Of a stretch of 39,774 nt of DNA, positions 7,266 to 12,062 are shown in pieces. A program made the translations under genes and the position numbers. Source of the DNA: Candidatus Nomurabacteria bacterium (lineage in GTDB: Bacteria > Patescibacteriota > Saccharimonadia > Saccharimonadales > Saccharimonadaceae); contig JAITGI010000027.1 of NCBI GenBank assembly GCA_031280785.1, positions 1 to 39,774 of the forward strand. Reading direction: 5' to 3'. The notes under the pieces are model-generated. The model saw only the letters and a program-made list of their open reading frames with translations, did no database searches and was not told where the DNA came from. How positions within the stretch are numbered: position 1 is the first letter of the stretch; each line of letters opens with the position of its first letter.

Positions 7266-8564
7266 ATGAACAAGTTTTTTATGCGAGAACTGCGATTTTT
7301 CGGTTGGCGTTTACCGCTGTGGCTGGTTGTTGTGGCGAGCGTGATTTTGTTGGGGTCGCTGATTAGTTTGATCACGGTTTTGTCGGTTCGTCCGCGCACG
7401 GTTGACGAAAATGGTCGGCTTGTCACGTTTTATGACGACGGCACTTCGAAAACGATTTTGACCAGTGCCGGAACTGTCGCCGGCGCCCTGAAACAGGCGG
7501 AAATCGAGGTCGACAAAGCCGACATCATCGAACCGACCGTCGGCACCGAGCTCATAGCCAGCAGTTACAGTGTCAATATTTACCGCGCCCGACCGGTGGT
7601 GGTCATCGACGGCGGGCGGCAAACTCGCGTAGTGACAGCGGCGCAGACCGGCAAAACTATCGCTCAGGCGGCGGATGTCAGCCTCTATGCCGAGGACGTC
7701 GCTGACATTCGGCGCGAGGGCGACATTTTGGAAGCCGACGGCGCCATTATGCGCGTGCAAATTCGCCGCGCCGTGCCGGTTCGTCTCAGCCTGTATGGTC
7801 AGACGACGAGCCAGCGCACCCAGGCGGCGACAGTGGCGGAATTTCTGGACGAGAAAGGCCTGAAACTGGACGAGCACGACAGTATCACGCCGTCGCTCAG
7901 CGCGCCGATCGCGCGCGATATGGAGATCAAGGTTTGGCGCGAGGGTAAAAATGTCATCACCGTTGACGAGGATGTGCCGTTTGAAATCGAAACTATCCAG
8001 AGCAACGACCATGACATCGGCTATCACGAGGTGCAAACGGTGGGCGAGAACGGTCGTAAATCCGTGACTTATGAAATCGAAATTCGTGGCGGCGTCGAAG
8101 TCGGTCGCACCGAAATCCAGAGCTTGGTCACGCTGTCGCCGAAATCACAGATCGAGATCGTCGGCATCAAGCGCAAGGGCAGCTATACCACGCCGTCCGA
8201 GAACGAAAATATCACCTGGAATTACCTGCGCGCCCAGGGTTTCAGCCGCGAGCAGACCGCGGGCATCATGGGCAATTTGCAACAGGAACACGGCTTCCAG
8301 ACATCTGGCGACGGTCTGGCGCAATGGACGGGCGGTCGGCGGGCGGCGCTGATGGCGATGGACGATCCATACAGCATTTACACACAATTAGATTTTCTGA
8401 TGATTGAATTAAATGGCGGTTATCGTGCGGTTAAAAATAGTTTATTGGCGGCGACCACTGTCGAGGAAGCCGTGATTATTTTCCAGGATCGTTTCGAGCG
8501 CTGTGGCGTTTGCATGCAGACGCGGCGGATCGAATACGCCTATAATATTTTGGCGAGTCATTAA
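7266..8564 (+). CDS. DUF348-repeat/G5-domain cell wall protein with C-terminal phage-tail-lysozyme-like domain (RpfB-like architecture)
   Basis: N-terminal TM; TFYDDGTSKTILTSAGTVAGALKQAEIEVDKADIIEP (DUF348) repeats; G5-like EIEIRGGVEVGRTEIQSLVTLSPKSQIEIVGIK; C-term NENITWNYLRAQGFSREQTAGIMGNLQQEHGFQTSGDGLAQWTGGRR. Confidence 0.8.
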   Translation: MNKFFMRELRFFGWRLPLWLVVVASVILLGSLISLITVLSVRPRTVDENGRLVTFYDDGTSKTILTSAGTVAGALKQAEIEVDKADIIEPTVGTELIASSYSVNIYRARPVVVIDGGRQTRVVTAAQTGKTIAQAADVSLYAEDVADIRREGDILEADGAIMRVQIRRAVPVRLSLYGQTTSQRTQAATVAEFLDEKGLKLDEHDSITPSLSAPIARDMEIKVWREGKNVITVDEDVPFEIETIQSNDHDIGYHEVQTVGENGRKSVTYEIEIRGGVEVGRTEIQSLVTLSPKSQIEIVGIKRKGSYTTPSENENITWNYLRAQGFSREQTAGIMGNLQQEHGFQTSGDGLAQWTGGRRAALMAMDDPYSIYTQLDFLMIELNGGYRAVKNSLLAATTVEEAVIIFQDRFERCGVCMQTRRIEYAYNILASH

Positions 8565-8565
8565 A

Positions 8566-9393
8566 ATGTCCGTTCGCGCCCAAACATCGCCCGGCAAAAC
8601 GACGCCGAAACCCGACAAATCGCTGGGGCAGCATTGGCTAAGGGACGAGGCGGTTTTGAGCGCGATCGCCGATTGCGCCGAGGTTGTGTCCGGCGACACG
8701 GTATTGGAAATTGGTCCGGGGCTGGGCACCTTGACGCGAGTTTTAGCGGCGCGCGCTGGGCGAGTGTTGGCGGTGGAGTTTGACCCGGATTTGGCGGCGA
8801 GGTTGAGCCGGGAGTTTGCGGAGTCCAAAAGTGTCGAAATCATCCCCGGGGATTTTTTGCGATTTGATTTGAGTCGTTTGCCGGCGGGGTATAAAGTCGC
8901 GGCTAATATCCCCTATTATATCACAAATCCCATAATTATGCAACTATTGAGCGCTCGGAACAAGCCGTGCGTGGCGGCGCTGCTCGTCCAGCGCGAAGTC
9001 GCCGAACGTTTGGCGGCAAAGCCCGGCGCGATGTCGATTCTGGCGGTAGCGGCGCAGTTCCACGCCGAAGTCAGCCTGGGACCGGTGGTGCCGGCGCGGC
9101 TGTTTACGCCGCCGCCAAAGGTCGACAGTCAGGTCGTGATTTTACGCCCCCGTCCGAGCGGTCGCGATTTATCGCCAGACCAGGAAAAACTATTTTTCCG
9201 CATCGTCAAAGCCGGCTTTTCAGCGCGCCGCAAAAAGTTACGCACTGCGCTGTCCGGCGGACTAAACACCCCTGTTGCGGAAGCTGAAATACTGTTACAT
9301 ACTGCCGGCATTAACCCAAATCTACGCGCCCAGGACTTGACGATTGAGGATTGGTGTGAGATAATGCAGTCATTCGACAATATCGTTGGATAA
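8566..9393 (+). CDS. rsmA: 16S rRNA dimethyladenosine transferase RsmA/KsgA
   Basis: KSLGQHWLRD, VLEIGPGLGTLTRVLA, VAANIPYYITNPIIMQLL, QREVAERLAAKPG. ATG 8566 preferred over track start 8503. Confidence 0.93.
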   Translation: MSVRAQTSPGKTTPKPDKSLGQHWLRDEAVLSAIADCAEVVSGDTVLEIGPGLGTLTRVLAARAGRVLAVEFDPDLAARLSREFAESKSVEIIPGDFLRFDLSRLPAGYKVAANIPYYITNPIIMQLLSARNKPCVAALLVQREVAERLAAKPGAMSILAVAAQFHAEVSLGPVVPARLFTPPPKVDSQVVILRPRPSGRDLSPDQEKLFFRIVKAGFSARRKKLRTALSGGLNTPVAEAEILLHTAGINPNLRAQDLTIEDWCEIMQSFDNIVG

Positions 9394-9506
9394 ACACGGC
9401 GCAGGTCGGCAAAAGCAATTGCTTTTGTTTCACTCATCAGAGTGAAACGGGTTTAATTCATTGTCGCCGCCCGCGCACATTTACAGTTCACATGGAGGTA
9501 AAAAAA
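9337..9506 (+). promoter_or_regulatory. Cassette A promoter and structured leader
   Basis: TTGACG (9337-9342)-17 nt-GATAAT (9360-9365), inside the rsmA 3' end. P1 ATTCGAC-aatatc-GTTGGAT 9372-9391; P2 palindrome CAAAAGCAATTGCTTTTG 9410-9427; P3 GTTTCACTC-ATCA-GAGTGAAAC 9427-9448; GTCG...ACATTTACAGTT; SD GGAGGT. Confidence 0.7.
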
Positions 9507-9983
9507 ATGGACATATTATCTTTTCAAAACGTAGCTTTAGCCGTAGTTTTAGTTTTAACAATCGTCCAATTTGTCGTTAGTGACAAATGCGACAATATTA
9601 TTGATAGCGTCCGATATATAAAATCGTTCAAGATGATACCTGCTGACGAGGGTCATGTGGTGGGAGAAAAAAAATATATCAATGGCGAAGAAGTATCGAA
9701 AGAGCTCTTTCATGAAGTATCTTTTTTGCGAAGGACGACATTAAAAGCCGCCAACAAATTAGAGGTTTTTCTATTAAGATTTAGACTGGTCGTGTGCGCC
9801 ATATATTCAGGCGTAATTATCACCTTTGTGATAAAATTTTTAATCGATTCTATACTTATCGGCGCAGTTATTTTTTTAGTGTTATTAGTTATGAACTTTA
9901 TGTTTAATACTAAAAGTGAAATCTTAAAATATGTTAATCTCCTAAAAGAGCAACAACCCGACAACGCCGGAAAACCCGACTAA
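9507..9983 (+). CDS. Orphan multi-TM protein (cassette A)
   Basis: ATG 9507 after SD GGAGGT; hydrophobic N-terminal segment and two C-terminal TMs; ends ...KPD* inside the terminator. Confidence 0.65.
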   Translation: MDILSFQNVALAVVLVLTIVQFVVSDKCDNIIDSVRYIKSFKMIPADEGHVVGEKKYINGEEVSKELFHEVSFLRRTTLKAANKLEVFLLRFRLVVCAIYSGVIITFVIKFLIDSILIGAVIFLVLLVMNFMFNTKSEILKYVNLLKEQQPDNAGKPD

Positions 9984-9996
9984 GTCGGGTTTTTTC
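9971..9996 (+). terminator. Intrinsic terminator with the stop codon in its loop (cassette A)
   Basis: AAAACCCGAC-TAA-GTCGGGTTTTTTC; TAA 9981-9983 is the stop codon. Confidence 0.88.
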
Positions 9997-10025
9997 TATC
10001 TATACACACAGGGAAAGGCGCATTA

Positions 10026-10202
10026 TTGACTTATCGGCTCAGGCGTGACACAATGTTAGTGTTAGATATTCATTTCGAATATCACGAAGAGTTTGACCGG
10101 GCAAAAGGAATTTCTTTTGCATCACTCGCTTGAAGTCATGCAATCTAGATTCATCGTCGTTGGTCATGGCACATTTACAGTTTTTTTAGGAGGTGCAAAA
10201 AA
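10026..10202 (+). promoter_or_regulatory. Cassette B promoter and structured leader
   Basis: TTGACT (10026)-17 nt-CACAAT (10049); P1 GATATTC-ATTTC-GAATATC 10065-10083; P2 GCAAAAGGAATTTCTTTTGC 10101-10120; P3 TGCATcACT-CGCTTGA-AGTcATGCA 10118-10142; ATCGTCG...GCACATTTACAGTT; SD AGGAGGT. Confidence 0.7.
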
Positions 10203-10598
10203 ATGGATACCATTATAATAGTTATAGGCATAATGTTTCTTATTGCTTTATCACCACAAAAGGAGCATTTTATTAATTTTTGGCTGATGGGTATGGCTGA
10301 AACTAGGGAAGAAGAAAAGTATGCATGGAAGGAGTTTGAGAAATTACGAAACCTGCGATCCAGATTGATTTTTGCGGCTGCAGCTTGCGCCATGGCTATA
10401 TTTTTCGTGAGAAGTTTTAACATAGGGAATACTGTGACCATTTTTAGTATAGACTATAATGTGGTCATTACTATTTTTCTATATGTTGCTACAATGATAT
10501 TGTTATTAGCTGTAATAATAAATAAAATAAAAACATATTTATTCTACGGTCGCCGGGCAAGAAGAAGAAAAAAGCTGAGTAATATAAAACCCGACTAA
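10203..10598 (+). CDS. Orphan multi-TM protein (cassette B)
   Basis: SD AGGAGGT upstream; N-terminal TM, charged loop, two C-terminal TMs, ends ...NIKPD*. Confidence 0.65.
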   Translation: MDTIIIVIGIMFLIALSPQKEHFINFWLMGMAETREEEKYAWKEFEKLRNLRSRLIFAAAACAMAIFFVRSFNIGNTVTIFSIDYNVVITIFLYVATMILLLAVIINKIKTYLFYGRRARRRKKLSNIKPD

Positions 10599-10610
10599 GT
10601 CGGGTTTTCT
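10586..10610 (+). terminator. Intrinsic terminator with the stop codon in its loop (cassette B)
   Basis: AAAACCCGAC-TAA-GTCGGGTTTTCT, same 23-nt core as cassette A. Confidence 0.88.
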
Positions 10611-10658
10611 TCTACTCGCACGCACAGCGACAAAAAACAATATGCTAAAATAGTAAAC

Positions 10659-12062
10659 ATGACCAACATCACCGAATATTATTTATTGCATCACCTCGAA
10701 TCGGTGCTGATCTTGTTGCTGATTTTTGTGGTGGCGTATACGATTGCCAAGACTTCGATTTTGCGCCGGCTGTATTTGCCGGTGGCGTTGGTGGCGGGGA
10801 TTATTATTCTGGCGGTGGGACCGCAAGTGCTGGGGCGGTGGCACCCGGAGCTCGCGCTGCCGGCGGATTTTTACACGACATGGGCGCCGCTGCCGGGGGT
10901 GCTCATCAATATCGTTTTTGCCTGTCTGTTCCTGGGGCATCCGGCGCTGAAACTGCGCCAGATGTGGAGCTTGTCGGGGCGGCAAATTGCCTTTGGGCAG
11001 ATGGTGGCGTGGGGGCAGTATCTGGTCGGCGGGCTGGTGGCGCTGTTGCTGCTGATACCGCTGTTCGGCGACACGCCGCTGGTTGCCAGCCTGTTGGAAA
11101 TCAGTTTCGAAGGCGGTCACGGCACGGTGGCGGGGCTGACGCCGGTTTTCAACGACCTGGGTTTTCATGACGGCGCAGCGATGGCGAATGGGCTGGCGAC
11201 GCTCAGCCTGGTTTCGGCGCTGATCATCGGCATTATCCTGATCAACTGGGGTCATCGTCGCGGTCACGCCGAGAAAACTCAGCCGCTGATTCATCGCGAA
11301 AAGCAGCGTTTTTATCACTATACGATTATCCATCGGATTCATTTACAGTATAAGGAAATGCATGATCGGCGCCTGACGGTGCGCAAGCTGGTGCGCCATG
11401 CGTTTTTGGTGATGTTGTCGCTGGGGCTGGGTTTTGGCATTCGGGCGATTTTGATCGCCATCGAGGACGCCACCTGGGGTCAAGCCGGGGTAAAGGTTTT
11501 TGGTTACGTGCCGGCGTTCAGTATTTGTCTGTTCGGCGGGCTGATCGTGAACAAGCTATGTTATCGGCTGGGTGTGCGGATTTCCATGACGGCAAATTCG
11601 CTGATTTCGACGCTGTCGCTGGGGATTTTGATTATGACGGCGGTTGGCACGATGTCGCTGGAATTTTTCCGCCAGCCGAACCTGGCGGCGTCGTTCTGGA
11701 TTTTGTTCGTGGCGGGTGCGATTTGGATTTTGGCGGCGGTGCTGATCCTGGCGCGGCGGATTTTTACGCGTTATTGGTTTCATAATGCCATGATTAGCTT
11801 CGGTCAGGCGATGGGTATGACGGCGACGGGGCTACTGTTCGCCCAAATGCTCGACCCGAAAAATCGCACGGGTGCCGTCGAGGCGTTTGGCTATAAACAA
11901 ATGCTGTTCGAGCCGCTGATGGGCGGCGGCTTGGTGACGGCGATGTCGATGCCGCTGATTCTGTTGCTGGGGCTGCCGCTATTCACGCTGATTTGCGGCG
12001 TGATTGCGGTCGGCTGGTTTTTGGCGGGAATTTTCTATTTCCGGCGGCTGTCGTTTGAATGA
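10659..12062 (+). CDS. Sodium/glutamate symporter (GltS) family transporter
   Basis: ISFEGGHGTVAGLTPVFNDLGFHDGAAMANGLATLSLVSALIIGIILINWGHRRG resembles the GltS core motif; about 10 TMs. Confidence 0.75.
   Translation: MTNITEYYLLHHLESVLILLLIFVVAYTIAKTSILRRLYLPVALVAGIIILAVGPQVLGRWHPELALPADFYTTWAPLPGVLINIVFACLFLGHPALKLRQMWSLSGRQIAFGQMVAWGQYLVGGLVALLLLIPLFGDTPLVASLLEISFEGGHGTVAGLTPVFNDLGFHDGAAMANGLATLSLVSALIIGIILINWGHRRGHAEKTQPLIHREKQRFYHYTIIHRIHLQYKEMHDRRLTVRKLVRHAFLVMLSLGLGFGIRAILIAIEDATWGQAGVKVFGYVPAFSICLFGGLIVNKLCYRLGVRISMTANSLISTLSLGILIMTAVGTMSLEFFRQPNLAASFWILFVAGAIWILAAVLILARRIFTRYWFHNAMISFGQAMGMTATGLLFAQMLDPKNRTGAVEAFGYKQMLFEPLMGGGLVTAMSMPLILLLGLPLFTLICGVIAVGWFLAGIFYFRRLSFE

What the first reader, a model, noticed from the sequence alone, without database searches (positions are those of the whole stretch)
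9971..10610. Stop codon embedded in the terminator loop, giving two unrelated proteins the same KPD C-terminus
Cassettes A and B both end in AAAACCCGAC-TAA-GTCGGGTTTT: the stem's 5' arm encodes K-P-D and the loop is the stop codon. Terminating ribosomes would cover the terminator stem, so translation could affect transcription termination. Post-terminator sequences also resemble each other (CTATACACACAG / CTCGCACGCACAG), suggesting A and B are diverged tandem copies of one unit.
Basis: partly seen in the sequence, partly recalled or inferred. Interest (0 to 1): 0.7.

Follow-up and report, generated by a model that had tools for sequence, protein, structure and literature searches.

The report
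Twin gene cassettes, stop-codon terminator loops
Two small membrane-protein genes, inserted side by side into a tiny bacterial chromosome, share the same folded start-of-message RNA and an identical end signal whose loop is the stop codon; this is unusual for this bacterial family and predicts that translating each gene weakens its own end signal.

Summary
AAAACCCGAC-TAA-GTCGGGTTTT occurs exactly twice (9971-9993, 10586-10608), each supplying the last codons (K-P-D) and the stop of an ORF; there are no other exact copies in the 649-kb assembly. The A and B leaders are clearly homologous (about 68% over 102 columns, z 14.7), with two helices supported by compensatory changes. The ORFs and post-terminator flanks show no detectable similarity. 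The pair therefore has shared ends and different middles.

It is an AT-rich (33-34% G+C versus 53% for the window), moron-like insertion between ksgA and a transporter gene. A relative has these two genes directly adjacent. The stop-in-loop placement is a real outlier. In this genome 24 of 26 sampled terminators lie 6-74 nt after the stop; only A and B enclose it. In about 961 kb from ten relatives, 0 of 73 enclose the stop in the loop, and distances peak at 18-30 nt.

From published E. coli work, ribosomes finishing A or B should block the hairpin and cause readthrough. Whether the cell uses this is not shown. No relative of the leader or the proteins was found, so this remains a two-copy, single-genome case.

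The parts
9355..10625 (+). approximate extent of the inserted two-cassette block between ksgA and the transporter gene (boundaries by comparison, about +/-15 nt)
   Evidence: G041 (L064) has ksgA and the same transporter directly adjacent; G+C of the two ORFs 33-34% versus 57% in both neighbours
9337..9365 (+). predicted promoter of A (TTGACG-17-GATAAT, TG before -10), lying in the 3' end of ksgA
   Evidence: consensus scan, 10 of 12; prediction only
9398..9488 (+). structured leader RNA of A (helix P1 closed by GCGC.GG.CGGC/GCCGCC.GCGC, hairpins P2 and P3, then conserved GCACATTTACAGTT)
   Evidence: homologous to B leader, 6 of 22 pairs changed on both sides, fold z -3.4 for 9372-9500
9494..9499 (+). 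Shine-Dalgarno GGAGGT of A, 7 nt before ATG 9507
   Evidence: sequence
9507..9983 (+). ORF A, 158 aa, N-terminal hydrophobic helix plus two further hydrophobic segments, C-terminus KPD; no known family
   Evidence: orphan in all searches
9971..9993 (+). terminator A: AAAACCCGAC-TAA-GTCGGGTTTT followed by TTT; loop is the stop codon 9981-9983
10026..10054 (+). predicted promoter of B (TTGACT-17-CACAAT, TG before -10)
   Evidence: consensus scan, 9 of 12; prediction only
10090..10182 (+). structured leader RNA of B, homologous to that of A
10189..10194 (+). Shine-Dalgarno GGAGGT of B, 8 nt before ATG 10203
   Evidence: sequence
10203..10598 (+). ORF B, 131 aa, hydrophobic segments as in A, C-terminus KPD; no known family and no detectable similarity to A
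10586..10608 (+). terminator B, identical to terminator A; loop is the stop codon 10596-10598
10643..10651 (+). extended -10 (TGCTAAAAT) kept in front of the transporter gene; the same motif TGCTACAAT precedes it in G041
   Evidence: prediction by similarity

Best explanation
A and B are two self-contained, horizontally acquired small membrane-protein genes, each with its own predicted promoter, a shared structured 5' leader, and an identical intrinsic terminator that also supplies the last three codons and the stop. They were inserted as one block between ksgA and a transporter gene, like phage 'morons'. The terminator works when untranslated RNA emerges. When a ribosome follows RNA polymerase to the stop codon, it covers the whole hairpin and some polymerases read through, from A into B and from B into the transporter-metG region. 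Shown: the anatomy, the leader homology, the insertion relative to a relative, and the outlier stop position. Inferred: horizontal origin, promoter activity, translation-dependent readthrough, and leader control of translation.
For: Identical terminators with in-frame TAA loop. Leader homology z 14.7 while ORFs are at background, and compensatory pair changes. Empty site in G041, where ksgA and the 70%-identical transporter are directly adjacent. AT-rich ORFs, 34% and 33% versus 57% in both neighbours. Own-genome stop-to-stem distances: A and B -9, the other 24 from 6 to 74, median 18.5. Relatives: 73 terminators, median 23, none with the stop in the loop. Published: in E. coli a terminator close after a stop codon is almost fully repressed by ribosomes and is freed when translation is removed (PMC4824070). 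Moron definition: single coding region with promoter and terminator, different composition, inserted between adjacent genes (PMC4378225).
Against: No expression data. Promoters are consensus matches only. Transcription-translation coupling in this lineage is inferred from terminator spacing and not measured. The relatives searched give no second insertion and no donor. The 3-way-junction fold is not the minimum-energy fold of B, so helix P2 is uncertain.
Confidence: 0.5

Rival explanations
1. Passive inheritance: the block came from an AT-rich donor whose terminators lie close to or inside stop codons because its polymerase outruns ribosomes (runaway transcription). In the present host the placement is a leftover with no regulatory use.
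For: AT-rich ORFs; B. subtilis-type genomes place terminators only a few nucleotides after stop codons (PMC7858274); all other own-genome terminators keep their distance.
Against: No donor found in viral, plasmid, phage or genome collections. Being inside the loop is more extreme than a few nucleotides after the stop. Identity of 23 of 23 in both copies, against about 68% in the leaders, hints at constraint or homogenisation.
Confidence: 0.3
2. Ordinary tandem duplication of one gene: A and B descend from one cassette, and the fast-evolving membrane ORF has lost detectable similarity while leader and terminator stayed conserved.
For: Same order of parts, same start context ATGGA, same three hydrophobic segments, same C-terminus; leader homology.
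Against: Protein alignment is at background (local z 0.8, global z 1.6) and ORF DNA also (z -0.4 and 0.9). Swapping of ORFs between common ends explains the same pattern equally well. This rival concerns origin and is compatible with the main explanation of function.
Confidence: 0.5
3. A translation-sensing switch: the structured leader senses a signal and sets translation of A and B; translated genes let polymerase through to the transporter and metG, untranslated ones terminate.
For: Conserved structured leader directly before the Shine-Dalgarno sequence in both units; Shine-Dalgarno bases mostly paired in predicted ensembles; stop-in-loop terminators.
Against: The transporter has its own promoter-like element between terminator B and its start, so it need not depend on readthrough. 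No ligand-binding family matches. Only two sequences of the leader exist.
Confidence: 0.12
4. Non-stop mRNA regulation as in ArfA/BrfA: the terminator ends the mRNA before the stop codon so that tmRNA controls the product.
For: The terminator stem lies in the coding sequence, as in brfA (PMC6881298).
Against: The stop codon is in the loop, upstream of the 3' arm and the T tract, so a terminated transcript contains the stop.
Confidence: 0.03

Closest known systems
Phage morons (accessory single-gene units inserted between adjacent genes; PMC4378225)
   Same: Single coding region with own predicted promoter and terminator, different base composition, inserted between two genes that are adjacent in a relative
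   Different: Located in a chromosomal context (ksgA, metG) with no phage genes recognised in the insert; two units in tandem share a structured leader and an identical terminator
Ribosome-repressed intrinsic terminators near stop codons in E. coli (tR2 constructs; pyrBI attenuator, both discussed in PMC4824070)
   Same: Hairpin within the region that a terminating ribosome covers; predicted repression by translation
   Different: Here the stop codon is the loop itself, in two natural genes; no effect on termination has been measured
B. subtilis-type short stop-to-terminator spacing (runaway transcription; review PMC7858274)
   Same: Terminator not kept clear of the terminating ribosome
   Different: All other terminators sampled in this genome and relatives keep 18-30 nt as a rule, so this is not the genome's general style
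arfA / brfA terminator inside the coding region (PMC6881298)
   Same: Terminator stem overlaps the 3' end of the ORF
   Different: In A and B the stop codon lies before the release point, so the message is not non-stop

Membership tests
Moron-type accessory gene unit | inserted between two genes that are adjacent in a related genome | tested here: met
   G041 has ksgA directly followed by the 70%-identical transporter
Moron-type accessory gene unit | own promoter and own terminator | tested here: inconclusive
   Terminators clear; promoters only consensus matches
Moron-type accessory gene unit | base composition different from neighbours | tested here: met
   ORFs 34% and 33% G+C versus 57% for ksgA and for the transporter gene
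Moron-type accessory gene unit | carried in a (pro)phage genome | tested here: not met
   Immediate neighbours are ksgA, the transporter gene and metG; no match of A or B in viral, phage or plasmid collections for A, viral for B. So: works like a moron, not filed as one
Intrinsic transcription terminator | G+C-rich hairpin followed by a T tract | tested here: met
   10-pair stem, 3-nt loop, T tract within the 3' arm and after it
Translation-sensitive terminator | stem within the stretch covered by a terminating ribosome | tested here: met
   stem begins 9-10 nt before the stop and ends 10 nt after it
Translation-sensitive terminator | termination efficiency rises when translation is removed | not testable with these tools
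   needs reporter or Term-seq
Known structured leader RNA (Rfam) | covariance-model match above the gathering score | tested here: not met
   no match above gathering score in 9000-11000; best matches are to the terminator or chance
Non-stop (ArfA/BrfA-like) gene | stop codon downstream of the transcript end | tested here: not met
   TAA lies in the loop, upstream of the T tract

The most novel reading that the evidence does not exclude
A portable cassette format in which a structured leader and a terminator with a built-in stop codon bracket interchangeable small membrane-protein ORFs, with translation of each ORF switching off its own terminator so that expression passes to the next cassette.
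Probability: 0.1. Interest if true: 0.75.

Novelty: new variant of a known kind. Interest (0 to 1): 0.35.

Why it matters
If translation of A and B does suppress their terminators, the pair would be a natural case of self-relieving termination, built into gene cassettes with common ends and different ORFs. The side result is of wider use: in this small-genome bacterial family the terminator stem usually starts 18-30 nt after the stop codon, which is what a lineage with ribosomes close behind polymerase would be expected to show, and it gives a baseline against which exceptions like A and B stand out. With only two copies in one genome, the general importance is limited for now.

Tried and rejected
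Post-terminator flank homology: at background. ORF A versus B homology by DNA and protein: at background. More copies of the hairpin: none exact in own genome. In 374 genomes searched, own genome included, only one other, G252, has the core ACCCGACNNNGTCGGGT, and there it is an ordinary terminator 12 nt after a stop, following an ORF I read from memory as ribosomal protein L21. G012 has a similar stem with a longer loop after a separate stop. More copies of the leader: covariance model on 394 family genomes and 393 order genomes (overlapping samples) found only A and B. A pattern scan of genome contigs gave three hits, about the number I expected by chance, scoring 15-16 bits against 105-108 for A and B. 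Viral scans gave none. Protein families, PDB, phage and plasmid searches: nothing significant for A or B; P0002 was not searched in phages, plasmids or PDB sequences. Fold search of single-sequence models: no match with E below 0.001; helical models, not informative. Integron-like attC reading: considered by eye, no convincing core sites. Non-stop mRNA reading: contradicted by stop position. A first version of my terminator script missed terminator A; the looser version is the one used.

Full report
What is there. The hairpin AAAACCCGAC-TAA-GTCGGGTTTT lies at 9971-9993 and 10586-10608 on the + strand, identical in all 23 bases. In both places the reading frame is AAA-CCC-GAC-TAA, so the proteins end K-P-D and the loop is the stop codon. 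No match is expected in shuffled sequence. No other exact copy exists in the 649-kb assembly, which is estimated 83% complete.

The genes. A most likely starts at 9507 (GGAGGT 7 nt before ATG; 158 aa) and B at 10203 (GGAGGT 8 nt before ATG; 131 aa). Both have an N-terminal hydrophobic stretch and two more hydrophobic segments in the C-terminal half. Neither has a significant match in Pfam, PHROGs, PADLOC or NCBIfam. A has none in PDB sequences, phages or plasmids. Neither has a relative in viral contigs. Single-sequence structure models are helical and of modest confidence (mean pLDDT 79 and 67), and fold searches give nothing with E below 0.001.

Shared ends, different middles. The stretch before each ATG is homologous: local alignment of about 102 columns at about 68% identity, z 14.7 against dinucleotide shuffles, with none of 1000 shuffles as good. 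Structure supports this. In a common fold 6 of 22 pairs differ on both sides between A and B and still pair, and sliding the partners by 1-3 columns reduces this to 0-1. The outer helix and the second hairpin carry most of these changes. The first hairpin is almost unchanged in sequence, and in B the minimum-energy fold uses its 5' part differently, so that hairpin is uncertain. Two sequences are few, and the structure was drawn from these same two sequences, which favours it. I therefore keep 'related units' and drop the flank argument. Duplication with fast ORF divergence and ORF exchange between common ends cannot be told apart here.

Insertion. In genome G041 the ksgA homolog is directly followed by the same transporter gene, 70% identical. 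In the window about 1.27 kb stands between them. The ORFs are 34% and 33% G+C, ksgA and the transporter gene 57%, and the window 53%. An extended -10 motif in front of the transporter is kept in both genomes (TGCTAAAAT / TGCTACAAT). Predicted promoters precede each cassette. This anatomy (single genes with promoter and terminator, odd composition, inserted between neighbours) is that of phage morons as defined in PMC4378225, although the setting is chromosomal and no phage gene is recognised. G041 is one relative; loss there rather than gain here is less likely given the composition, but is not excluded.

How unusual is the stop in the loop? I measured the distance from stop codon to the first G-C pair of the nearest downstream terminator-like hairpin with one script throughout, on mechanically called ORFs of at least 80 codons. 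In 304 kb of this genome, 26 such terminators were found: A and B at -9, the other 24 from 6 to 74 nt, median 18.5. In about 961 kb from ten relatives, 73 were found: median 23, most between 18 and 30. One was at -37, with the stop in its tail rather than its loop, in an ORF of doubtful reality (L124). None had the stop in the loop. In 150 kb of E. coli K-12 the script finds 21, median 19, none below 5. So A and B are outliers, and since they are related they may count as one event. The ORFs are uncurated and the terminator definition is simple, so the exact numbers will shift with better annotation.

What it would do. In E. coli a terminator placed several bases after a stop codon is almost fully repressed; efficiency recovers beyond about 27-30 nt, and removing translation abolishes the repression (PMC4824070). 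The usual spacing in this family fits a lineage in which terminators must avoid the ribosome, although that is an inference from spacing alone. A ribosome stopped at the TAA of A or B would cover the whole stem. The prediction is readthrough when the gene is being translated and termination when it is not. The predicted Shine-Dalgarno pairing in both leaders would allow the leader to set this, but nothing here shows that it does. The alternative that the placement is a relic of a donor with short stop-terminator spacing (the B. subtilis pattern, PMC7858274) remains quite possible.

What it is not. It is not a non-stop gene of the ArfA/BrfA type, because the stop precedes the transcript end (PMC6881298). 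It is not a recurrent KPD*-hairpin: among 374 genomes searched, including this one, only one other has the same stem core, as an ordinary terminator 12 nt after a stop. The leader matches no Rfam family above threshold, and its covariance model finds only A and B in 394 family and 393 order genomes (these samples overlap and used stricter filters).

Verdict. With only two copies in one incomplete genome I rate it a new variant of a known kind, of moderate interest.

Noticed in passing
L112-L131 and L145-L184 (ten relatives), window and L092-L111, L132-L141 (own genome): Stop-to-terminator distances in this family peak sharply at 18-30 nt, with few below 10 nt. This looks like a lineage-wide rule and could bear on how closely ribosomes follow polymerase here.
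   Followed up: partly
window 9949-9962: A second copy of the terminator's 5' arm (ACAACCCGAC) lies about 18 nt upstream in A and could pair with the 3' arm instead (I11: 86% complementary); B has no such copy.
   Followed up: no
window 10659-12062: A 467-aa membrane protein with no Pfam or NCBIfam match is present in 22 of 121 family genomes at 38-70% identity over long stretches: a conserved but unnamed transporter-like family.
   Followed up: no
one search matches such as G092:C7:132029-132556 and G066:C50:31176-31718: Many relatives have a second, about 30% identical KsgA-like methyltransferase of about 250 aa in addition to ksgA.
   Followed up: no
L012:1501-1530 and L090:1501-1520: G012 and G252 carry nearly the same CCCGAC/GTCGGG terminator stem in ordinary positions after a separate stop codon.
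   Followed up: yes
L124:1267-1617 (+): The single relative's terminator-like hairpin at -37, with the stop codon in its tail; possibly a spurious ORF.
   Followed up: no
window 7266-8564: A G5-domain protein with a Phage_lysozyme2 domain lies directly before ksgA, an unusual cell-wall enzyme arrangement.
   Followed up: no
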